A model generated the notes under the pieces. It was not told where the DNA came from. It searched no databases and saw only the letters and a list, made by a program, of their open reading frames with translations. From positions 141,212 through 205,211 of the forward strand of contig JAOAAX010000001.1 of NCBI GenBank assembly GCA_026418675.1: a stretch of DNA of 64,000 nucleotides, written 5' to 3'. Below, one piece after another: positions 44,884 through 58,892 of this stretch; position 1 is the first letter of the stretch; each line of letters begins with the position of its first letter. Made by a program: the position numbers and the translations under genes. The DNA comes from Chthoniobacterales bacterium. GTDB taxonomy: Bacteria; Verrucomicrobiota; Verrucomicrobiia; Chthoniobacterales; DYNR01.

Positions 44884-45930
44884 GTGCCCACCCAACAAAA
44901 ATTCTCCCCTGAGCCTCTTACCGTCGGACAATTCTTCGCCACTTACGCTAAACGCCTCGGCCTCCGCCTCGCCAGTTCCGCACGCGGCCTCAATCGCATC
45001 ATCCGCGAACCTACCATCAACCGCCCAGGACTCGCACTCGCCGGCTTCTTCCACTACTTCCCGGCAAAGCGCATCCAGGTATTCGGCGCTTCAGAAATGA
45101 GTTACCTCAGAAGCCTCCCCGAAAAAACCGCCCAGGAGCGCGTCCGCGCTCTCTTCGAGCGCAACTTCCCTTGCGCCGTCATCGCCCGCGACTCCCGCAT
45201 CCCTCCGTGGTTCCTCCAAATCGCCGAAGCCAACTCCACTCCACTCTTCCGCACTGCCATGATCACCATGAAGTTCACCAACGCCGCTACTCTCGCTCTC
45301 GAAGCAGAATTCGCCCCTCAAACCTCCGAGCACGGGAGCATGGTGGACATCATGGGCATCGGAACCCTCATCCGCGGCCCTTCCGGCATCGGCAAAAGCG
45401 AATGCGTCCTCGGCCTCATCGAGCGCGGCTACAGCCTCGTCAGCGACGACATCACACGCTTCCGCCTCGTAGATGGCCGGGAAATCGTAGGAATGTCTTC
45501 CGAACTCTCCCGCTTCCATATGGAAGTCCGAGGTATCGGCATCATCAACGTCGCCGCTATCTTCGGCGTCGGCGCTGTCCGCGCCGAAAAACGACTCGAC
45601 CTCGTCGCAACTCTCGAAGATTGGGACAAATGCGATGACCTCGACCGCACTGGTCTCACCTCCCTCACTTACGAAATTCTCGGAATCCCCATCCCTCACG
45701 TCATCATCCCAGTCCGCACAGGCCGCGACCTCGCCCGCCTCGTCGAAGTCGCCGCACTCGACCAAAAACTCAAATCCATGGGCTACCATTCCGCGCTCGA
45801 ATTCAACCAACGCCTCCTCCAACTCATCCGCCAGGATTCCAAACAAAATTCCCAACAAGCTCCCCCCACACCAACACCTAATAACACAACCCAACAAACC
45901 ACCTCACCAACTCCACCTCAAAATCCATAA
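44884..45930 (+). CDS. hprK: HPr kinase/phosphorylase
   Basis: GTG start; Walker A GPSGIGKSECVLGLIERGYSLVSDD and signature MEVRGIGIINVAAIFGVGAVR. Confidence 0.94.
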   Translation: MPTQQKFSPEPLTVGQFFATYAKRLGLRLASSARGLNRIIREPTINRPGLALAGFFHYFPAKRIQVFGASEMSYLRSLPEKTAQERVRALFERNFPCAVIARDSRIPPWFLQIAEANSTPLFRTAMITMKFTNAATLALEAEFAPQTSEHGSMVDIMGIGTLIRGPSGIGKSECVLGLIERGYSLVSDDITRFRLVDGREIVGMSSELSRFHMEVRGIGIINVAAIFGVGAVRAEKRLDLVATLEDWDKCDDLDRTGLTSLTYEILGIPIPHVIIPVRTGRDLARLVEVAALDQKLKSMGYHSALEFNQRLLQLIRQDSKQNSQQAPPTPTPNNTTQQTTSPTPPQNP

Positions 45931-45998: not shown

Positions 45999-46679
45999 AT
46001 GTCTGCAGCAGTTGCCCCTCCCCCACTCGACCGCAAATTCGTCGAATCCCTCGTCCGCGAATCACTCTACCGCCAAATCGGTCGCCCTCTCCCCGCAAAA
46101 GAACCTCCACTCCTCGTCGTCAATAGCTCCGCTCGCCACATGCACGTTTCACAAAAGGACCTAGAAGTCCTTTTTGGTCCAGGCTACCAACTCAAAGTTC
46201 ACAAGTGGCTCTACCAGGAAGGCTTCTTTGCCGCAGAAGAAACCGTCACTCTCATCGGCCCACGAAGGCGCATCATCCCCAACCTCCGCATCCTCGGCCC
46301 CTGCCGAAACCTCACTCAGATCGAACTCGCCTACACCGACGCTATCCAACTCGGCCTCGACATCCCTACCCGCCTCTCCGGCGACATCGAAGGAACGCCA
46401 GGCGCCTATGTCATGGGTCCTGCAGGCATGATCGAACTCAAACAAGGCGTCATCCGTGCGGCCCGTCACGTCCATATGGGCCCCGCCGACATCGAATATT
46501 ACGGCGTCAAAAACGGCGATCGTATGAAACTCCGCGTCGTCTCCCCCCCTAATACCGTTGTATTTGAAGATGTTATTGTCCGTTACGACCCCAACGTCCG
46601 CCTCGAAGTCCATATTGACACAGACGAAGCCAACGCCTGTAACCTCTCTCAGGCCATCAAAGTCGAGCTCTTCCGCTAA
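45999..46679 (+). CDS. pduL: BMC phosphotransacylase (PduL-type phosphate propanoyltransferase)
   Basis: NSSARHMHVSQKDLEVLFG, GPCRNLTQIELAYTDAIQLG, RAARHVHMGPADIEYYGVKNGDRM; N-terminal amphipathic helix LDRKFVESLVRESLYRQI resembles an encapsulation peptide. Confidence 0.93.
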   Translation: MSAAVAPPPLDRKFVESLVRESLYRQIGRPLPAKEPPLLVVNSSARHMHVSQKDLEVLFGPGYQLKVHKWLYQEGFFAAEETVTLIGPRRRIIPNLRILGPCRNLTQIELAYTDAIQLGLDIPTRLSGDIEGTPGAYVMGPAGMIELKQGVIRAARHVHMGPADIEYYGVKNGDRMKLRVVSPPNTVVFEDVIVRYDPNVRLEVHIDTDEANACNLSQAIKVELFR

Positions 46680-46786
46680 CCAAATCCACCAATTTCCTCC
46701 GCTAATTTCTGAACCCATCAACCAAACCAAAGAACAAAGAAAACCCAAAAAATTCTCAAAACAACCGTTAAACCCAAACCTACAAA

Positions 46787-47056
46787 ATGAACGAAGCCAT
46801 TGGTCTCATTGAAACGCGCGGCTACGTTGGCCTGGTTGAAGCCAGCGACGCAATGGTCAAAGCCGCTAACGTCGAACTCGTCAAATCCATCCCCATCGGC
46901 GGTGCCCTCATCACTACCATCGTCCGGGGCGATGTCGGAAGTGTCAAAGCCGCTGTCGAAGCCGGTCGCGAAGCCGTCAAACGCGTCGGAACCCTCGTCG
47001 CTTCTCACGTAATCGCTCGCCCAAGCCCAGAGCTCCTTAAATTCTTCACTTCTTAA
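46787..47056 (+). CDS. BMC-H hexameric shell protein (paralog 1)
   Basis: 89 aa; [58 protein letters not shown]. Confidence 0.95.
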   Translation: MNEAIGLIETRGYVGLVEASDAMVKAANVELVKSIPIGGALITTIVRGDVGSVKAAVEAGREAVKRVGTLVASHVIARPSPELLKFFTS

Positions 47057-47116
47057 CCAACCTCGAAACCATCGACCTAAAAACCATAAAATAAATAATC
47101 AACCATTTTATCTCCT

Positions 47117-47425
47117 ATGGCAGGACAAGCTCTCGGAATGATCGAAACCAAAGGCCTCGTCGCTCAATTCGAAGCCACAGACGCAATGCTCAAAGCCGCT
47201 AACGTCGAACTCGTTGGCTGGGAAAAAATCGGTTCCGGCCATGTCGCCGTCTTCATCCGTGGGGACGTCGCAGCCGTCAAAGCCGCAGTTGAAGCGGGTG
47301 CAACCGCCGCCTCCGCTATCGGCGAAGTCGTGGCTGTTCACGTAATCCCGCGTCCTCACGAAGACCTCCCAGGCCTCGGCAAATTCCTCCAAGGCGCTTC
47401 AGCTCCCAAGTCAGCAGCAAAATAG
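47117..47425 (+). CDS. BMC-H hexameric shell protein (paralog 2)
   Basis: 102 aa; [58 protein letters not shown]. Confidence 0.95.
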
Positions 47426-47652
47426 TCTTGCTCGAACTTGCTCGAACTTGCCGAGCCAAAAGCCCCTCTGCTCCAAAATCAAACGCTCCGAAATCTAAAT
47501 TTTCGGAAATTCCCCAATCACACAAGCAACCATACGGCAAACTCCCTCGTCGCCACCATTAAACCCCAAAAAACCAATTAATCGTAGACTCACCGATCCC
47601 AGCAAACTCAACCACCCCATACCTATACGTCTAGATAGCCCTTCCCGTTTCC

Positions 47653-48858
47653 ATGGCCGCTAAACCACAGGCAATCCTCGTTGCAAACATCGGCAGCACC
47701 TCCTTTAAATTCCGCCTCTACCAAATGCCAGAAGAGCGGCTCCTTGCAAAAGGTGCGGCCGACCGCATCGGCTCACCCGAATCCTCTTGGTCCCTCCAGC
47801 TCGATTCCGGTAACAAATCCTCTGGCTCCGCAACCTTCCCAGATTACGGTTCCGCTGCAGAATTCTTCCAAACAAAACTCATTCAATCCGGAACCATCGA
47901 AAGCTTTACCCAGCTCGCCGCCTTCGGTTTTAAGCCCGTAATGGCCCGCGACATCAGCGGCTGCCAATTCATGGACGAAACCGTCCTCAAAGCAATGGAG
48001 TTTTTCAGCCCCGTCTTCCCAGCCCACAACCCACCCTACATCCGCGCTGTCCGCGACCTCCAAAACCGCTTCCCCTCCATCCCCTGCATCGGCTTGTTCG
48101 AGACCGCCTTCTACGACCACGTCCCAGAACATCACCGCCGAATGGCCGTCCCCCTCCGCTGGGAACGCGACTACGGCGTCCGTCGCTACGGCTTCCATGG
48201 CGCAAGCCATCGCTACGTAACTTCTCGCCTCGCAGAAATCCTCGGCCATTCAAACCTCCGCATCATCTCCTGCCACCTCGGCGGCAGTTCCTCCATCGCC
48301 TGCGTCCGAAATGGCGTCGCAGTGGACTCAAGCTGGGGCATGACGGCTCAAAGCGGTCTCCCACACAATAACCGCGTCGGCGACTTCGACGCTTTCGCCT
48401 TGCTTTACGTCATGTCCCAATTCGGCCTAACCATCGAACAGGTCGCATCAGACCTCAGCAAAAACGGCGGCCTCAAAGGAATGTCCGGACTCGATTCCGG
48501 CGACGTCCGCGACCTCGAAGCCGCTGCAGCAGCAGGAAATAAAGACGCAAAAATTGCCCTCCAAGTCTTCATTTCCGCCGTCCGCAAATACATCGGCCAA
48601 TTCCTCGTCGAGCTAAACGGAGCCGACGCCATCATCTTCACCGCAGGTATCGGAGAGAATAATCCCCACCTCCGCGCTGAAATTTGCGCCAATATGTCCT
48701 TCTGTGGACTCGAACTCGACCCAGCCATCAACAACAACACCCTCGCAAAAGAAGCAAAAATCTCGACCGAAAACTCCAAAATCGCCGTCTGGGTCATCCC
48801 CACAAACGAAGAGCTCGTCATCGCACGTGCAGCTTGGCAGCTCCTCCACCAAAAATAA
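47653..48858 (+). CDS. ackA: Acetate/propionate kinase (BMC-associated)
   Basis: ILVANIGSTSFKFRLY, RRYGFHGASHRYV, SCHLGGSSSIACVRNGVAVDSSWGMTAQSGLPHNNRVGDFD, FTAGIGENNPHLR. Confidence 0.93.
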   Translation: MAAKPQAILVANIGSTSFKFRLYQMPEERLLAKGAADRIGSPESSWSLQLDSGNKSSGSATFPDYGSAAEFFQTKLIQSGTIESFTQLAAFGFKPVMARDISGCQFMDETVLKAMEFFSPVFPAHNPPYIRAVRDLQNRFPSIPCIGLFETAFYDHVPEHHRRMAVPLRWERDYGVRRYGFHGASHRYVTSRLAEILGHSNLRIISCHLGGSSSIACVRNGVAVDSSWGMTAQSGLPHNNRVGDFDAFALLYVMSQFGLTIEQVASDLSKNGGLKGMSGLDSGDVRDLEAAAAAGNKDAKIALQVFISAVRKYIGQFLVELNGADAIIFTAGIGENNPHLRAEICANMSFCGLELDPAINNNTLAKEAKISTENSKIAVWVIPTNEELVIARAAWQLLHQK

Positions 48859-48962
48859 CCCCCATTTCTAAAATATTTCTTCACCCCATCAACGAGAATA
48901 AACCCGAATAAACCCAAACAAACTCCCAACCAAATACACTAACCCAAAAACTAAAAACGCCT

Positions 48963-49244
48963 ATGTCCCAACAAGCCATCGGAATGATCGAAACTCGGGG
49001 CCTCGTCGCCCTCGTTGAAGCTACCGACGCCATGCTCAAATCGGCCAACGTCACACTCGTCGGCCCCATGACACAAGTCGGAAACGCCCTCGTAACTGCA
49101 GTCGTCACAGGCGATGTTGCCGCCGTAAAAGCCGCAGTCGAAGCTGGCCGCGCAAGCGCTCAAGCCCTCGGCGAAATCGTATCCGTCAGCATTATCGCCC
49201 GCCCCAACCCAGAATTGACCACCGTCTTGCCAAAGGCGAAATGA
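48963..49244 (+). CDS. BMC-H hexameric shell protein (paralog 3)
   Basis: 93 aa; [59 protein letters not shown]. Confidence 0.95.
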   Translation: MSQQAIGMIETRGLVALVEATDAMLKSANVTLVGPMTQVGNALVTAVVTGDVAAVKAAVEAGRASAQALGEIVSVSIIARPNPELTTVLPKAK

Positions 49245-49552
49245 TCCTCGCACGCGTCGAAGGAAGCATCGTCGCCACGAAAAAAAACCAGAAAATGACG
49301 GGGAGCAAATTCCTCCTCGTTCGCCCTCTGGTCGTAGATACGCCAGACGCAACCTCCTTTCGCGAAGGCCAATCCACACTCGTAGCAACCGATGCCCTTG
49401 GCGCAGGAGAAGGCGACATCGTCCTCGTCGTCCAAGGAAGCTCCGCACGCCTCGCAATGGACAATAAAGACACCCCTGTTGATGCCGTCGTCATCGGAAT
49501 CGTTGATTCCGTGGATATCGGCAAACGCATCCTCTACTCCGCCCGTGGCTGA
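49241..49552 (+). CDS. BMC-P pentameric vertex protein (EutN/CcmL family, paralog 1)
   Basis: MILARVEGSIVATKKNQKMTGSKFLLVRPL...ATDALGAGEGDIVLVVQGSSARLA...VDAVVIGIVD; 4-nt overlap with the BMC-H gene. Confidence 0.94.
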   Translation: MILARVEGSIVATKKNQKMTGSKFLLVRPLVVDTPDATSFREGQSTLVATDALGAGEGDIVLVVQGSSARLAMDNKDTPVDAVVIGIVDSVDIGKRILYSARG

Positions 49553-49712
49553 ACTCACCCACTCATCCCCTAATCCATTCCCACAAACCCCACCGTTTTC
49601 CCATCCCCAACCGTGAACCCCAATCCCCTTCCTTATCCTCTTCCTACCAATCCCTAAGCCGCACCACTCACCTACGAGCATAAAATCTTAAAATCAGATA
49701 AAAAAATCTTTT

Positions 49713-51134
49713 ATGGACCAACAGCTCATCTCCCGTGTTGTTAGCGAGGTTCTCTCTCGGCTCCAGCAAGTCCAATCCGCTGTCGCAACCAGCTCCACCG
49801 GCTTTGGCGTTTACGAAAAAATGGACGACGCCATCGCCGCAGCCCAAAATTCCTTTGAAAAACTCCGCGAAGGCGGCTTTCGTGCCCGCAAAGAAGCTAT
49901 CGCTGCCATCCGCCGCCTCTGCGTCCAAAATGCTGAGCCGTGGGGGCGCCTCGAATTCGAAGAAACAAAAATTGGCCGCCTCAAACACAAAATAGAAAAA
50001 CTCCGTATTTGTGGCGACCTCGTCCCTGGCGTAGAATTCCTCGAACGCCAGGCCTTCACCGGCGATTTCGGCCTAACGGTCATTGAATACGCCCCGTGGG
50101 GCGTCATTGGTGCTGTCACTCCCTCAACGCATAGTGTCCCCACCCTCACCGGCAACGCAATCAACATGATTGCCGCAGGCAACGCAGTCGTCTTCAACAC
50201 ACATCCCTCCGCTTGCAACTGTGCTGCCGTTGCCATCCGCTCCTACAACGAAGCCATTTACCAGGCCACTGGCATTAGCGACCTCCTCTGCACCGTCCGC
50301 AAACCCACCCTCGAGACCTTCGACACAATGTGCAAAAACCCCCATATCAAACTCCTCTGCGTCACCGGCGGGCCAGGCGTCGTCAAAGCCGCCATGCGCA
50401 CAGGCAAACGCGCCATCTGCGCCGGCCCAGGCAACCCACCCGTCGTCGTTGACGAAACCGCCGACATCGAACGCGCCGCACGCTCCATCATCCAAGGAGC
50501 CTCCTACGATAACAACCTCCTCTGCATCGGCGAAAAAGAAGTTTTCGTCGTAGATTCCGTCGCCGACAAACTCATCGCTGCACTCAAAGCCGCAGGCGCC
50601 GTCCAGCTCAACGACGAACAAATCGCCGCCCTCACCAAAGCCGCCTTCATCTTCCCCGAAGGACAAGGCTGTGGCTGCGCCCACCCAGTCGTCAACAAAA
50701 AGCTCGTCGGCGCCGATGCCGCAACCCTTGCACAAACCATCGGCCTCAACGTTCCACCCCATACCGAACTCCTCTTCGGCGAAACCCACGCCGACCACCT
50801 CTTCGTCCAAGAAGAACAAATGATGCCCTTCATCCCAATCGTCCGCGTCCGCAACGTTGACGAAGCCATTGAGCAAGCCATCCGTGCCGAACACGGCTAC
50901 AAACACACCGCCATCATGCACAGCCAAAACATCGCCAACCTAACCCGCATGGCCCAGCTCGTAGATACCACTCTCTTCATCAAAAACGGACCCTGCATGA
51001 CCGGACTCGGCCTCGGCGGCGAGGGATTCCTTTCCTTCTCCATCGCTACCCCCACTGGCGAAGGCGTCACCACCCCCATGACCTTCACCCGTTCCCGCCG
51101 CTGTGTCATGGTTGAAGCCCTCAACATGTTTTAA
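49713..51134 (+). CDS. CoA-acylating aldehyde dehydrogenase (BMC signature enzyme)
   Basis: GVIGAVTPSTHSVPTLTGNAINMIAAGNAVVFNTHPSA, KRAICAGPGNPPVVVDETADIERAARSIIQGASYDNNLLCIGEKEV; N-terminal helix LISRVVSEVLSRLQQV. Confidence 0.94.
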   Translation: MDQQLISRVVSEVLSRLQQVQSAVATSSTGFGVYEKMDDAIAAAQNSFEKLREGGFRARKEAIAAIRRLCVQNAEPWGRLEFEETKIGRLKHKIEKLRICGDLVPGVEFLERQAFTGDFGLTVIEYAPWGVIGAVTPSTHSVPTLTGNAINMIAAGNAVVFNTHPSACNCAAVAIRSYNEAIYQATGISDLLCTVRKPTLETFDTMCKNPHIKLLCVTGGPGVVKAAMRTGKRAICAGPGNPPVVVDETADIERAARSIIQGASYDNNLLCIGEKEVFVVDSVADKLIAALKAAGAVQLNDEQIAALTKAAFIFPEGQGCGCAHPVVNKKLVGADAATLAQTIGLNVPPHTELLFGETHADHLFVQEEQMMPFIPIVRVRNVDEAIEQAIRAEHGYKHTAIMHSQNIANLTRMAQLVDTTLFIKNGPCMTGLGLGGEGFLSFSIATPTGEGVTTPMTFTRSRRCVMVEALNMF

Positions 51135-51152
51135 CTCCTCCCGCCTAACGCT

Positions 51153-51428
51153 ATGCGCGTCGCTAAAATCCAAGGCTACGTCACCTCTACCGTCAAACAT
51201 CCAAGCCTCCACGGCCAACGCCTCCTCATCGCCCAACCCCTCGACGCGCAAAACCTCCCCGATGGCCCACCCCAAGTCGTCATTGACCCGCTCGGCGCAG
51301 CCATCGGCCAACACGTCATCATCACCAGCGACGGCGCAGAAGCTCGCGAAATCGTCAAAGACCCCCTAAGCCCAGCCCGCTGGAACATCCTCGGCATCAT
51401 CGACCCCGAACGCTCCCTCGCCACATGA
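51153..51428 (+). CDS. BMC-P pentameric vertex protein (paralog 2)
   Basis: MRVAKIQGYVTSTVKHPSLHGQRLLIAQPL...QVVIDPLGAAIGQHVIITSDGAEARE...RWNILGIID. Confidence 0.93.
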   Translation: MRVAKIQGYVTSTVKHPSLHGQRLLIAQPLDAQNLPDGPPQVVIDPLGAAIGQHVIITSDGAEAREIVKDPLSPARWNILGIIDPERSLAT

Positions 51429-51754
51429 GAATCGGAACTGTCATCGGCCGCGTCACCCTCTCTGTCCGCCACCCCTCCTTCCGTGGCGAGCGGCTCCTCC
51501 TCACCCTCCCCTGGAAAAATTCCACCTTCTCCAAACCAAATTCCTACGATTTTAGCATCGTCGTCTATGACCAGCTCGGTGCAGCCGTCGGCCAACAAAT
51601 CTGCATTAGCGAAGGCCGCGAAGCCGCTTGCCCCTTCCCAGAACCCACCCCCATTGACGCCTACTGTGCCGCTCTCATTGACGAAATTGCTTACACTGAA
51701 GGCGATGCCATCCCCCACACGCAAGCCCCTCCACAAACAACCTCCAATCCCTAA
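51425..51754 (+). CDS. BMC-P pentameric vertex protein (paralog 3)
   Basis: MRIGTVIGRVTLSVRHPSFRGERLLLTLPW...IVVYDQLGAAVGQQICISEGREAA...DAYCAALID; ATGA overlap with the upstream gene. Confidence 0.92.
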   Translation: MRIGTVIGRVTLSVRHPSFRGERLLLTLPWKNSTFSKPNSYDFSIVVYDQLGAAVGQQICISEGREAACPFPEPTPIDAYCAALIDEIAYTEGDAIPHTQAPPQTTSNP

Positions 51755-51778
51755 ACCATCAAGCCACAAAATCCAACT

Positions 51779-52906
51779 ATGAGCGTGTTCTCCGCAAAAG
51801 ACGCTGAAGAATTCCTAAAATCTGGCGCGAAGGAACTCCGCTACAACCGCAACCTTCAAATCACCCCTGGCGCACGCGACCTCCTCAGCGAAGCTGGCAT
51901 CCGTTTAATCTTCGAATCAGACTCACCCACTCCAGCCAACTCCCCCATCCCCCTCTCCCACGCCTCCAATACCCCACGGCCCATGAACACCAAACCCGTT
52001 GCCACTCATTCCCCAGATGGTAAACCCTACAAACCAGAACACCTCGCTCTCTTCACCTCCCCCGAAGCCGAAAAACTTAAGCTCGAAATCTGCGACATCG
52101 GCCGCCGCATGTGGATGCGCGAATACACCGACGGCAACGGCGGCAACATCTCCGCTCGCATCGGCCCAAACGAATTCCTCTGCACTCCCACCGGCGTCAG
52201 TAAAGGCTTCCTCACCCCCGATATGATCTGCATGGTTGACAGCAACGCAAACCAACTCGCCGGCTCCCTCCCACGCACGAGCGAAATCACCACCCACCTC
52301 GCCATCTACAAAACAACCCCCGAAGCCAAAGCCGTCTGCCACGCCCATCCCGTCCACGCCACCGCATTCGCCGTCGCTGGCTTTGAACCACCTCCACGCC
52401 TCATCCCAGAATGGGAAGTCTTCGTCGGCAAAGCCGCCCTCGCTCCTTACCGCACCCCAGGCAGTCCCGAAATGGCAGAAGTCATCGGCCCTCTAGCTCC
52501 AAAACACCAATCCATCCTCATGGGAAACCATGGCGTCATCTGCTGGGGAACAAGCGTCGAAGACGCTTACTTCAAAATGGAAATCACAGATGCTTACTGC
52601 CGCACCATCTTCATCGCTATGCAACTCCCCAGCGGCCAACACCCAACCATCCCCTGCGACAAAATGTCCGAACTTCTCGAACTCAAAAAGAAAATGGGCC
52701 TCCCCGATCCCCGTTACGACCTCAAACCCGCCGAACTCTGCGAAGTCGATCCTTGGGCACTCATGCAGGACCGCCCCCGCACCTGCTCCTCTCCGGCACA
52801 GCCTTGCCACCCATCCCCAAACTTCACCCAAGCCACAAACGCCGAACTCGAAGCCCTCGTCCAATCCCTCACAGACGAAATCATGGCCAAACTCACCCCA
52901 AAATAA
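51779..52906 (+). CDS. Class II aldolase (fuculose-/rhamnulose-1-phosphate aldolase family) with N-terminal extension and C-terminal encapsulation-like helix
   Basis: Aldolase core EYTDGNGGNISARIGPNEFLCTPTGVSKGFLTPDMIC...HAHPVHATAF...GNHGVICWGTSVEDAYFKME; C-terminal AELEALVQSLTDEIMAKLTPK; N-terminal ELRYNRNLQITPGARDLLSEAGIRLIFE. Confidence 0.92.
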   Translation: MSVFSAKDAEEFLKSGAKELRYNRNLQITPGARDLLSEAGIRLIFESDSPTPANSPIPLSHASNTPRPMNTKPVATHSPDGKPYKPEHLALFTSPEAEKLKLEICDIGRRMWMREYTDGNGGNISARIGPNEFLCTPTGVSKGFLTPDMICMVDSNANQLAGSLPRTSEITTHLAIYKTTPEAKAVCHAHPVHATAFAVAGFEPPPRLIPEWEVFVGKAALAPYRTPGSPEMAEVIGPLAPKHQSILMGNHGVICWGTSVEDAYFKMEITDAYCRTIFIAMQLPSGQHPTIPCDKMSELLELKKKMGLPDPRYDLKPAELCEVDPWALMQDRPRTCSSPAQPCHPSPNFTQATNAELEALVQSLTDEIMAKLTPK

Positions 52907-53146
52907 GCGGAACAGACCCCGCCCCATCACACACAAAAAATCTCAAAACCCTCAACTCCTCAACTCCTCAACTCCAAACCTTCAAAACCTCAAAACCCCC
53001 CACAAAAACCTCACCCACACAAAAAAACCGAAACCAACCACCTCACAACCAATTTTCCATCCCACCCTCGAACCTAAACCCCACACACTCCAATCCCCAT
53101 CCCATAACAAAAAAACGAATCCTCCACACCATCTAACCATCCAACC

Positions 53147-54073
53147 ATGAATGTCGCAATCATCGGAGCTGGTGGCCGCGTCGGAAGCTGCGCGGCTTTC
53201 TGCCTACAAATTCGCGGAATCGTCCGCGAAATCATCCTCCTCGATGCCAACCAAGCCGCTTGCGAAGGCGAAGCCCTCGACCTCCTCCACGGAGCAGCAC
53301 TCACTGCAGACCAACGCATCTACGCCGGTTCCTACAACGACGTCCCTCGCGCCGACGTCATCATCATTACCGCCGGCCTCCGTCGCAAGCCCGATGAATC
53401 CCGCCTCGACCTCATCAACCGCAACGTCGCTCTCTTCCTAAGCATCCTCGACCAACTCCAGGCAAACGGCCTCCGGCCCGACTCCATCGTCCTTGTCGTC
53501 AGCAATCCCGTGGACATCCTCACCCAACTCGCTGTCCGAAAACTTAACCTCCCACCCCATCAAATCATCGGACTCGGCACCGTCCTCGATACCTCCCGCT
53601 TCTGCTCCCTCATAGCCGAAAGCCTTAAGCTCCCTGCAACACAAGTCCGCGCACTCATCCTGGGCGAACACGGCGACTCCATGCTCCCAGTCTGGTCTGC
53701 AGCTACTGTTGACGGCCTCCCTCTCCTCAAATTCCCCGGCGCTACCCCAGCTTGGCAAAACCAAATCTTCGAACGCACGAAAAACAGCGGCGCCGAAGTT
53801 ATCAGCCGCAAAGGAGGCGCTGGCTTCGCAGTCGGCATTGCCATCAACGAAGTCGTAGAGAGCATCGCCCTCGATCGCCACCGCATCCTCCCTGTCAGCT
53901 CCCTTATCAACGGCATCTATGGCATCCGCGACGTCTGCTTAAGCGTCCCAACTGTCGTTGCAAGAAAAGGTGTCGTCCAAACAATCGAACTGGAACTTTG
54001 GCCAAAAGAATTAAACGCACTCCAAGCCTCTGCCCGTGCGCTCTCCGAAACCTTCTCAAAAATCAAAACGTAA
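53147..54073 (+). CDS. L-lactate/malate dehydrogenase family protein (BMC-associated)
   Basis: MNVAIIGAGGRVGSCAAFCLQIRGIVREIILLDAN, VVSNPVDILTQLAVRKLNLPPHQIIGLGTVLDTSRF, LGEHGDSMLPVWS. Confidence 0.92.
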   Translation: MNVAIIGAGGRVGSCAAFCLQIRGIVREIILLDANQAACEGEALDLLHGAALTADQRIYAGSYNDVPRADVIIITAGLRRKPDESRLDLINRNVALFLSILDQLQANGLRPDSIVLVVSNPVDILTQLAVRKLNLPPHQIIGLGTVLDTSRFCSLIAESLKLPATQVRALILGEHGDSMLPVWSAATVDGLPLLKFPGATPAWQNQIFERTKNSGAEVISRKGGAGFAVGIAINEVVESIALDRHRILPVSSLINGIYGIRDVCLSVPTVVARKGVVQTIELELWPKELNALQASARALSETFSKIKT

Positions 54074-54141
54074 TCACCCCATCCCTTCCAGTCCCAGCCC
54101 TAGAACTAAATATGCCAGGTAGAAACTAACCCTAAAAAATA

Positions 54142-54790
54142 CGCCGCCCTAAAAGGGCTAAACACAGCAGCCCAAGGCATCGCCCCGTGTAATAACGACG
54201 AAAAATATCTACACGCCGCCCTGAAAGGGCATAATACATCATCCTAGGGTATCGCCTTGGGAACATGCCCCCAAAAAAAACACGCAAGCCTCGAAGGGGC
54301 AACATAGGGGAGCCCATGGCATCATCCTCGAATCATGTGGCAAAAAACACGCGAAGCCCCGAAGGGGCAGCATATGCTAGCCCAGAGGATCATCCTCGAA
54401 TCATGCGGCAAAAAAACACGCGAAGCCCCGAAGGGGCGACAATATGAGAGCCCAGGGCAACGCCCTGGGTTAAAACGGGAACAAAAAAATTTCGCCCTGA
54501 AGGGGCGAAACAAATCGTGTAGATTGATTTGTTGGGGAGGTTGGATAAAATGTTCCGCCCTTTCAGGGCTTCGGTCTAATTTTGGCGTTTTTCCCCAGGG
54601 CGCTGCCCTGGGCTATCATATTATGCCCTTTCAGGGCAGCATATTTTTTTTTTTGACATTATATCCAGAGCGTCGCGTTGAGTTGATATGTTCTGCCCCT
54701 TTAGGACGAGGGATATTTATTTCTTACAATTGTTTTCAGTTTGTCTTTCAGGGCTAATTTGTTCCTACTGTTTGGCCCATTCAGGCAGCG
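54142..54790. repeat. Array of REP/BIME-like two-hairpin palindromic repeats, mirrored about roughly 54.53 kb
   Basis: About 70-nt periodic units starting near 54142, 54214, 54282, 54350, 54419 and a half unit at 54492 (e.g. CGCGAAGCCCCGAAGGGGCGACAATATGAGAGCCCAGGGCAACGCCCTGGGTT), followed by reverse-complement units (CCGCCCTTTCAGGGCT; CCCCAGGGCGCTGCCCTGGGCTATCATATTATGCCCTTTCAGGGCAGCAT) and decayed copies to about 54790. Confidence 0.88.
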
Positions 54791-57191: not shown

Positions 57192-58892
57192 TCAGGGGAT
57201 GGGGAAACGAGCGGTTAACTCAAGAACTTGTGCGCGGATTTCCTGGAGTTTGGCTTCGTCTGAACGGGCTTGCAAAACGGCATGGATGAGTTCTGCGACT
57301 TCCATCATTTCGTCTTCCCTAAACCCGCGTGTCGTCATTGCAGGGGTGCCAAGGCGAATTCCCCCCGTCTTAGAAATTGGCTCTGTGTCGAAAGGAATAG
57401 CGTTTTTGTTGACGGTGATGGCGGCTTTATCAAGGGTAATTTGTGCAGTGAGGCCGTCGAGACCAGCCGGGCGCAGGTCCACCAAAAGGAGGTGGTTGTC
57501 CGTGCCACCAGAGACGATTCGATAACCGAGGTTGGCAAGACGCGCCGCTAATGCCTTGGAGTTCGCTACAACCTGCCGAGCGTAATTGGCAAATTCGGGC
57601 TGAAGGGCAAGGCCTAAGCATACGGCTTTTGCAGCAATGACGTGCATGAGAGGCCCCCCTTGAACACAGGGGAAAACATTGGAATCTATCTTTTTTGCAA
57701 ATTCCTCGCGACAGAGGATTAGCCCGCCACGGGGACCGCGGAGGCTTTTGTGGGTTGTGGTCGTAACGAAATGAGCGTGAGGGACAGGATTGGGATGAAC
57801 CCCGCCAGCTACAAGCCCAGCAATGTGTGCCATATCCACAAAGAGATATGCTCCGACAGAATCAGCAATTTCTCGCATGCGGGCAAAATCAATGATTCGC
57901 GGATAAGCAGAAGCGCCGGCAGTAATCATACGCGGGCGCTCGCGTTGGGCAATTTCGGCTAGTTCGTCATAATTGATGAGTTCCGTCTGGCGATCCACTC
58001 CATAATGGATAACATTGTATATTTTTCCGGAGAAATTAGCTTTATGGCCGTGGGTGAGGTGGCCACCGTGAGCGAGGTCCATGGTGAGGATTTTGTCGCC
58101 GGGCTGGAGAACGCTGAAATAAACGGCCATGTTGGCTTGGCTGCCACTGTGAGGTTGGACGTTGGCGTGCTCGGCACCGAAAAGCCGTTTCGCACGCTCA
58201 ATTGCGAGCGCTTCGATTTCATCAACGTGTTCACAACCACCATACCAGCGTCGGCCGGGGTAACCCTCGGCATACTTATTAGTAAGACAGGAACCTTGGG
58301 CTTCGAGAACAGCCAGCGGCGCGTAATTTTCTGAAGCAATCAACTCGATGTGCTCGGCTTGGCGAAGGGCTTCGCGCTCGATGGCTGTAAAAACGGCCGG
58401 ATCGGCATGAGCAAGATGACGTGGGGTTCGTTTTGGGATCATATTCGGTTCGGAATCAAGTTTTTGGAGAATGGCAGCGACGGCTTTTTTTAGGATTTCC
58501 TTGCATTCGTAATAAACCTCGAGGGGGCCGCCAATTGGGTCCGGGACACTACGCTCGCCGTCTAAGAATTCCCGGATTAGAAAGACTTTGTGCTCGGCTT
58601 CGGGAAAAAGGATGTGGAGGATTTCTCGGTGGTCACGAGTCATAGCAAAAATGAGGTCTGCCTCGTAAACCATAGTTGCGCTGAGGGCGCGGCTGCGGTG
58701 CAGGGTAAGATCAATTCCCTCCTCCGCAAGCACTTGAACAGCCTGGGAGGACGGGGGGCGTCCTTCAATAGCATCAATGCCTGCGGATTGGACGCGAATA
58801 TCTTTTCGCGAACCAAGGAGCTGGCGCATGAGGGCTTCCGCCATGGGGCTGCGGCAGGTATTCCCTGTGCAGACAAAAAGAATGGAAATCAT
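57192..58892 (-). CDS. glyA: Fusion: low-molecular-weight protein-tyrosine phosphatase - serine hydroxymethyltransferase
   Basis: 566 aa uninterrupted ORF; N-terminal [15 protein letters not shown] (C-x5-R P-loop) and VPDPIGG, then [46 protein letters not shown]...[15 protein letters not shown] (SHMT). Confidence 0.92.

What the first reader, a model, noticed from the sequence alone, without database searches (positions are those of the whole stretch)
45999..54073. Complete bacterial microcompartment operon of the planctomycete/verrucomicrobial (PVM) sugar-aldehyde type
Eleven consecutive same-strand genes encode PduL, BMC-H, BMC-H, AckA, BMC-H, BMC-P, CoA-aldehyde dehydrogenase, BMC-P, BMC-P, class II aldolase and LDH/MDH-like dehydrogenase. 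Established knowledge: this enzyme set matches the BMC characterised in Planctomyces limnophilus for L-fucose/L-rhamnose degradation (aldolase yields lactaldehyde; AldDH + PduL + AckA give propionyl-CoA, propionyl-phosphate and propionate; LDH recycles NADH). No BMC-T protein is visible, so the shell would be built from only H and P types. No fucose/rhamnose isomerase, kinase or transporter is in the window, so the substrate is inferred.
Basis: partly seen in the sequence, partly recalled or inferred. Interest (0 to 1): 0.75.

Follow-up and report, generated by a model that had tools for sequence, protein, structure and literature searches.

The report
Ordinary fucose/rhamnose-type bacterial microcompartment operon
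An uncultured verrucomicrobial bacterium carries a complete, well-known kind of protein organelle that breaks down plant and algal deoxy sugars, most likely L-fucose in this genome, and turns the toxic by-product lactaldehyde into lactate.

Summary
In detail: 45999-54073 holds eleven intact same-strand genes, pduL-BMC-H-BMC-H-ackA-BMC-H-BMC-P-AldDH-BMC-P-BMC-P-class II aldolase-LDH/MDH. They are the only BMC-domain shell genes in the 2.34-Mb genome, and there is no BMC-T. The host belongs to the Verrucomicrobiota, order Chthoniobacterales. Named verrucomicrobial genomes keep the gene order (59 of 63 complete loci strictly). AldDH falls in one fully supported clade apart from EutE, PduP and GRM. 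This is a PVM-type metabolosome, already described for Chthoniobacteraceae (PMC11596606). The interpretation needs correcting. The chemistry is lactaldehyde to lactyl-CoA to lactyl-phosphate to lactate, not propionate. Outside the window, this genome has a RhaB/FucK-type kinase, a divergent fucose-isomerase-like protein and LutABC lactate oxidase. It has no rhamnose isomerase of two searched families and no other class II aldolase, so L-fucose is likelier than rhamnose. The usual upstream DeoR regulator is missing; hprK sits there instead. The 'LDH' carries an invariant malate-dehydrogenase-like residue, so its substrate is open. Interest is low: a new member of a known kind.

The parts
45999..46679 (+). 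PduL phosphotransacylase (regenerates CoA; lactyl-CoA to lactyl-phosphate inferred)
   Evidence: PF06130 E=3.4e-68; NF011652 above cut-off
46787..47056 (+). BMC-H shell hexamer 1
   Evidence: PF00936 E=2.4e-27; 80-93% identical in the nearest loci
47117..47425 (+). BMC-H shell hexamer 2, with the KAAN and PRPH motifs of 'basal' facet hexamers
   Evidence: PF00936 E=4.2e-29; closest solved chains are a BMC-H tandem fusion (6ner) and PduA; motif definition from PMC8217296
47653..48858 (+). AckA acetate/propionate-family kinase (lactyl-phosphate to lactate + ATP inferred)
   Evidence: PF00871 E=3.7e-99; TIGR00016 above cut-off
48963..49244 (+). BMC-H shell hexamer 3
   Evidence: PF00936 E=8.4e-24
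49241..49552 (+). BMC-P shell pentamer 1
   Evidence: PF03319 E=2.1e-28
49713..51134 (+). CoA-acylating aldehyde dehydrogenase; N-terminal helix MDQQLISRVVSEVLSRLQQ is a probable encapsulation peptide
   Evidence: NF011927 E=1.1e-193, above cut-off; catalytic C271 invariant in 83 sequences; closest solved chains include 5jfl and 4c3s, the latter from the C. phytofermentans fucose/rhamnose BMC (source organism of 4c3s from own knowledge and PMC4762007)
51153..51428 (+). BMC-P shell pentamer 2
   Evidence: PF03319 E=3.2e-25
51425..51754 (+). BMC-P shell pentamer 3
   Evidence: PF03319 E=6.2e-16
51779..52906 (+). Class II sugar-1-phosphate aldolase, the signature enzyme (DHAP + L-lactaldehyde inferred); extra N-terminal domain and a C-terminal helix (possible encapsulation peptide)
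   Evidence: PF00596 E=2.2e-44; metal-ligand set E169/H188/H190/H251 invariant in 73 sequences; related to FucA structures; the only PF00596 protein found in the genome
53147..54073 (+). LDH/MDH-family dehydrogenase, presumed NAD+ regenerator, true substrate unknown
   Evidence: PF00056 and PF02866; motif AGLRRKPDESR with R80 invariant in 37 sequences
44884..45930 (+). hprK, HPr kinase/phosphorylase, 68 bp upstream of pduL; neighbour occupying the place of the usual DeoR regulator; possible read-through transcription
   Evidence: PF07475 and PF02603; gap; DeoR found next to pduL in 54 of 62 comparable loci

Best explanation
This is a PVM-type catabolic bacterial microcompartment of an uncultured Chthoniobacterales bacterium. 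Shown from sequence: a complete H/P-only shell set and the enzymes aldolase, CoA-acylating AldDH, PduL, AckA and an LDH/MDH-family dehydrogenase, in the canonical order. Inferred mechanism: a cytosolic isomerase and a RhaB/FucK-type kinase make a 6-deoxy-ketohexose-1-phosphate. The encapsulated aldolase splits it into DHAP, which leaves for glycolysis, and L-lactaldehyde, which is held inside the shell. AldDH oxidises lactaldehyde to lactyl-CoA, PduL makes lactyl-phosphate and recycles CoA, and AckA yields L-lactate and ATP. The LDH/MDH-like enzyme re-oxidises NADH, possibly by reducing part of the lactaldehyde. L-lactate is then oxidised to pyruvate by LutABC, encoded about 0.18 Mb away on the same contig. 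In this genome L-fucose, via a divergent fucose-isomerase-like protein, is a likelier substrate than L-rhamnose, because no rhamnose isomerase was found.
For: Gene families and intact catalytic residues. Same order in relatives and in named verrucomicrobial genomes. AldDH clade of 83 rows separated from EutE, PduP and GRM with support 100. A RhaB/FucK-type kinase gene lies next to or within about 3 kb of the BMC operon in L098, L102, L103, L117 and L119, and rhaA lies next to it in L115 and about 4 kb away in L119. In G031 (L048) operon, kinase and Lut genes form one cluster. Among 57 genomes all 11 BMC carriers have the kinase and an isomerase (RhaA or L008 type), against 22/46 and 25/46 of non-carriers (Fisher p=0.0014 and 0.0043; RhaA alone 10/11 vs 14/46, p=0.00036). 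The own genome has the kinase (best solved match L-fuculose kinase 4c23), the fucose-isomerase-like protein, complete LutABC and no other class II aldolase. The BMC-free relative G056 clusters the L008-type isomerase, kinase, a bifunctional rhamnulose-1-phosphate aldolase/short-chain dehydrogenase and LutABC, which points to the same lactaldehyde-lactate-pyruvate route. Published pathway: PMC8857213 and PMC11596606.
Against: No isomerase, kinase, transporter or sugar-specific regulator lies within the operon; the pathway is stitched together from four separate places. The isomerase-like protein scores below the Pfam gathering score, matches no NCBIfam model, and its profile matches no solved isomerase. 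All BMC-carrying relatives have RhaA but this genome does not; the assembly is 94% complete, so RhaA could simply be unassembled. Substrate specificity of class II aldolases cannot be read from sequence, and the best NCBIfam model (below cut-off) is a 3-oxo-tetronate-4-phosphate decarboxylase. The association statistics treat related genomes as independent.
Confidence: 0.87

Rival explanations
1. The organelle serves both L-rhamnose and L-fucose, as in Planctopirus limnophila, and rhamnose isomerase is missing only because the assembly is incomplete.
For: All 10 BMC-carrying relatives have RhaA; the genome is 94% complete in 131 contigs; the kinase scores best against rhamnulokinase models, though below their cut-offs.
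Against: Neither RhaA (PF06134) nor the other rhamnose isomerase type (TIGR02635) is found, while an alternative isomerase candidate is present.
Confidence: 0.35
2. One reading: the pathway ends in propionyl-CoA, propionyl-phosphate and propionate.
For: PduL and AckA family names include propionate; GRM5 and PDU compartments do make propionate.
Against: Propionyl-CoA requires propionaldehyde from 1,2-propanediol by a B12- or glycyl-radical dehydratase; none of the eleven genes is one. The published PVM scheme gives lactyl-CoA, lactyl-phosphate and lactate. Lut lactate-oxidation genes cluster with the sugar genes in relatives and are present here.
Confidence: 0.04
3. The compartment handles a different ketose-1-phosphate (for example 5-deoxyribulose-1-phosphate giving acetaldehyde, or ribulose-1-phosphate), and the deoxyhexose link is inherited annotation.
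For: Class II aldolases are promiscuous (PMC4207490); this genome lacks RhaA; weak model matches include other sugar-phosphate families. The isomerase/kinase pair needed for a 5-deoxyribose route was not searched for.
Against: Deoxyhexose kinase and rhaA genes lie by the orthologous operon in relatives; kinase and isomerase co-occur with the BMC; LutABC fits a lactate product.
Confidence: 0.1
4. The last gene is a malate-type dehydrogenase, not a lactaldehyde or lactate dehydrogenase, and recycles NADH with oxaloacetate or another acid. (This concerns one step and is compatible with the best explanation.)
For: Invariant R at the LDH Q102 position in all 37 orthologues; only the malate dehydrogenase NCBIfam model PRK06223 passes its cut-off. 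Other loci lack this gene, and six named loci of the nearest clade have a PduS/RnfC-like protein there instead (plus a PduT-like BMC-T in the five whose contig is long enough), which fits an NAD+-regeneration role but does not require lactate as substrate.
Against: The closest solved chains are LDHs, and the chain 1y6j deposited as L-lactate dehydrogenase also has R there; the position four residues on is glutamate, as in LDHs.
Confidence: 0.35

Closest known systems
PVM BMC of Planctopirus (Planctomyces) limnophila, pvmABDEGHIJKLMNO (Erbilgin et al. 2014, described in PMC4207490 and PMC11958385)
   Same: Class II aldolase as signature enzyme, AldDH, PduL, AckA, LDH/MDH-family dehydrogenase, BMC-H and BMC-P shell genes; aerobic fucose/rhamnose catabolism through lactaldehyde
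   Different: No DeoR regulator (pvmA) at the locus; the planctomycete sequences themselves could not be fetched here, so the comparison is by published gene content
Verrucomicrobial PV-BMC of Puniceicoccaceae/Akkermansiaceae (PMC8857213) and freshwater Verrucomicrobia (PMC5615132)
   Same: Three BMC-H and three BMC-P with the same enzymes; lactyl-CoA to lactate scheme
   Different: Those genomes also carry fucI, rhaA and transporters; here only a divergent fucose-isomerase-like protein and a kinase were found
Chthoniobacteraceae SH-KS-3 metabolosome (PMC11596606)
   Same: Related family, same lactaldehyde-to-lactate scheme, LutABC, LDH at the BMC locus
   Different: There LutABC lies in an operon with the rhamnulokinase; here the two are on different contigs, and no rhamnose isomerase was found
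GRM5 (fucosome) of Clostridium phytofermentans
   Same: Fucose/rhamnose and class II aldolase; AldDH 4c3s is among the closest solved structures
   Different: GRM5 reduces lactaldehyde to propanediol and dehydrates it with a glycyl radical enzyme; that enzyme is absent from this operon

Membership tests
PVM-type BMC locus | Class II aldolase (PF00596) signature enzyme within the shell-gene cluster | tested here: met
   51779-52906, E=2.2e-44; metal ligands invariant
PVM-type BMC locus | Metabolosome core: CoA-acylating AldDH plus PduL phosphotransacylase | tested here: met
   both above curated cut-offs
PVM-type BMC locus | Lactate/malate-family dehydrogenase as the presumed NAD+-recycling enzyme | tested here: met
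   53147-54073; its activity is not testable here
PVM-type BMC locus | Shell of BMC-H and several BMC-P without BMC-T | tested here: met
   3 BMC-H + 3 BMC-P; no other PF00936 domain in the genome
PVM-type BMC locus | AldDH groups with PVM AldDHs rather than EUT, PDU or GRM | tested here: met
   83 verrucomicrobial AldDHs, from loci showing this gene order as far as their contigs reach, form one side of a branch with support 100 against EutE, PduP, a Rahnella GRM enzyme and a clostridial one; no planctomycete reference was available
PVM-type BMC locus | DeoR-family regulator next to the operon (ancillary in PMC4207490, not defining) | tested here: not met
   hprK lies upstream instead; the only DeoRC protein in the genome is on contig C38; 54 of 62 comparable loci have it
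PVM-type BMC locus | Induction and polyhedral bodies on fucose or rhamnose | not testable with these tools
   Needs culture
L-fucose/L-rhamnose utilisation pathway | Deoxyketose kinase in the genome | tested here: met
   RhaB/FucK-type kinase on C98
L-fucose/L-rhamnose utilisation pathway | L-rhamnose isomerase in the genome | tested here: not met
   PF06134 and TIGR02635 negative; 94% complete assembly
L-fucose/L-rhamnose utilisation pathway | L-fucose isomerase in the genome | tested here: inconclusive
   531-aa protein L008 matches Fucose_iso_C and Fucose_iso_N1 below gathering scores; next to the kinase in G010 and in one cluster with it in G022, G035 and G056
GRM5 / PDU (propionate-forming) BMC | Glycyl radical or B12 diol dehydratase in the locus | tested here: not met
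   All eleven genes assigned, none is a dehydratase

The most novel reading that the evidence does not exclude
This lineage has trimmed the PVM system to a fucose-only form: rhamnose isomerase and the dedicated DeoR regulator are gone, a previously uncharacterised fucose-isomerase-like family (L008) feeds the organelle, and the operon sits behind hprK under HPr-kinase-linked control. In related loci the NAD+-regenerating step is modular: an LDH/MDH enzyme in some, and a PduS-like flavoprotein with a PduT-like BMC-T shell protein in others.
Probability: 0.25. Interest if true: 0.4.

Novelty: new member of a known kind. Interest (0 to 1): 0.2.

Why it matters
It confirms that a small uncultured Chthoniobacterales genome keeps the complete deoxy-sugar organelle, and it fixes two points for annotators: the carbon product should be lactate, not propionate, and the gene called LDH should not be trusted as a lactate dehydrogenase. 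The side findings (a swappable NAD+-recycling module and an uncharacterised isomerase family that shares clusters with the kinase and the lactate oxidase) are testable with ordinary enzymology.

Tried and rejected
The 2014 P. limnophilus paper is not held; its content was taken from later papers. Direct placement against planctomycete PVM proteins was not possible: the single genome-contig scan listed verrucomicrobial relatives among its best 80 (one record is titled Proteobacteria but sits inside the verrucomicrobial clade), and plasmids gave only more distant enzymes of EUT, PDU or GRM type among the best hits. A profile of the L008 isomerase family found no solved isomerase, so its fold was not confirmed; it was not sent to structure prediction because loci from the genome search are not on that tool's list of permitted sources. 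Helical-moment tests of the putative encapsulation peptides were mostly uninformative (of the three peptides only the AldDH N-terminus stood out, shuffle fraction about 0.05). Promoter and terminator scans gave no excess over shuffles, so operon borders and read-through from hprK remain undetermined. The idea that the L008 isomerase tracks BMC presence was tested and rejected (3/11 vs 17/46, p=0.73); likewise Lut presence (7/11 vs 25/46, p=0.74).
Full report
Observation. The eleven genes are present, intact and consecutive on the + strand at 45999-54073. Gaps are short, with 4-bp overlaps at H3/P1 and P2/P3. The window is the right end of contig C41 of a 2.34-Mb, 94%-complete assembly, and the three BMC-H genes are the only PF00936 domains in it, so the statement that there is no BMC-T holds genome-wide.

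What it is. Relatives of the AldDH at 71-79% identity come from Chthoniobacterales and neighbouring verrucomicrobial MAGs. The order pduL-H-H-ackA-H-P-AldDH-P-P-aldolase is kept in 10 of 56 order-level relatives and in the named genomes. Of 63 loci holding all ten genes, 59 are in strict order by best hit; in the other four one BMC-H gene was the best hit for two of the paralogous BMC-H queries. An AldDH tree puts 83 of these verrucomicrobial enzymes on one side of a branch with support 100, away from EutE, PduP, a Rahnella glycyl-radical-type enzyme and a clostridial one. Gene content matches the PVM locus type as described in PMC4207490 and the verrucomicrobial PV-BMC with three BMC-H and three BMC-P (PMC8857213). 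The same system has been described for Chthoniobacteraceae (PMC11596606), so this is a further member of a known kind. PMC8217296 counted 285 PVM representatives in 2021.

Mechanism. The aldolase has the FucA-like metal ligands (E169, H188, H190, H251, invariant in 73 sequences) and the AldDH has its catalytic cysteine (C271, invariant in 83) (the roles of these residues are from established knowledge of the families). Established chemistry and the published scheme give L-lactaldehyde + DHAP, then lactyl-CoA, lactyl-phosphate and L-lactate with ATP. Genomic context supports lactate as product. In G031 the BMC operon is followed by the kinase, a two-domain class II aldolase and Lut genes; in G010 an isomerase, the kinase and LutABC are adjacent; in the BMC-free genome G056 the same genes surround a bifunctional rhamnulose-1-phosphate aldolase/short-chain dehydrogenase and LutABC. 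The own genome has a complete LutABC at C41:1543-4613.

Substrate in this genome. The BMC aldolase is the only class II aldolase found in the assembly. A RhaB/FucK-type kinase lies on C98; its closest solved relative is an L-fuculose kinase, although its best profile is rhamnulokinase, below that model's cut-off. No rhamnose isomerase of the two searched families was found, although all 10 BMC-carrying relatives have RhaA. A 531-aa protein on C39 matches the fucose isomerase domains below Pfam's gathering score. Its family adjoins the kinase in G010 and shares a cluster with it in G022, G035 and G056. Both the kinase and one of the two isomerase types are found in all 11 BMC carriers among 57 genomes, each against about half of the others. 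L-fucose is therefore the leading candidate, rhamnose second, with the caveat that about 6% of the genome may be missing.

Points of difference. First, a DeoR regulator stands next to pduL in 54 of 62 comparable loci. Here hprK lies 68 bp upstream, and the only DeoRC protein of the genome is on C38. Second, the dehydrogenase carries an invariant motif AGLRRKPDESR with arginine at the position that in LDH is the pyruvate-selecting Gln102 (residue role from established knowledge). Only the malate dehydrogenase subfamily model passes its cut-off. One chain deposited as LDH (1y6j) also has Arg there, so the substrate stays open. Third, the gene is not universal: 35 loci have it next to the aldolase and 27 with enough sequence do not. 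In six loci of the nearest clade (L096, L099, L101, L104, L110, L118) a PduS/RnfC-like flavo-iron-sulfur protein takes its place, followed by a PduT-like BMC-T in the five loci whose contig is long enough to show it. This replacement is indirect support that the LDH/MDH enzyme serves NAD+ regeneration (inference).

Verdict. Observation confirmed; type assignment supported; product chemistry corrected; substrate narrowed but unproven. Ordinary for the field, with a few testable side observations.

Noticed in passing
L096:13051-14916 (also L099, L101, L104, L110, L118): In PVM operons of several close relatives the LDH/MDH gene is replaced by a PduS/RnfC-like protein, followed (except in the truncated L099) by a two-domain PduT-like BMC-T, so the 'no BMC-T' rule of PVM loci is not general and NAD+ recycling looks modular.
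   Followed up: partly
L008:1414-3006 (-) = G000:C39; relatives L050-L060: A highly conserved (81% mean column identity) fucose-isomerase-like family below Pfam threshold and without an NCBIfam match; shares clusters with a RhaB/FucK-type kinase, a class II aldolase and LutABC in relatives.
   Followed up: partly
L181:2035-3120 (-) = G001:C40: The closest family-level relative lacks the BMC AldDH but keeps an orphan copy of the BMC-type aldolase (56% identity, N-terminal domain retained, altered C-terminus), apparently a remnant or re-used enzyme.
   Followed up: partly
54132-54710: Array of palindromic repeats (GCCC-GAAG-GGGC type) with 68-72-nt spacing, about six copies in one orientation then about three in the other, in the 821-bp gap between the convergent ldh and icd genes; a consensus search found no other copies in the window.
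   Followed up: partly
57192-58892 (-): One ORF fuses a low-molecular-weight protein-tyrosine-phosphatase-like domain (residues 3-147) to serine hydroxymethyltransferase (164-565).
   Followed up: no
window, change near 54000: Strong C-rich coding strand (GC skew about -0.25 to -0.6 for the + strand genes at 42-54 kb), changing sign where gene direction switches at about 54 kb.
   Followed up: no
L048:9472-10767: A 431-aa protein with two class II aldolase domains in tandem follows the kinase in G031; similar double-domain ORFs occur in other relatives.
   Followed up: no
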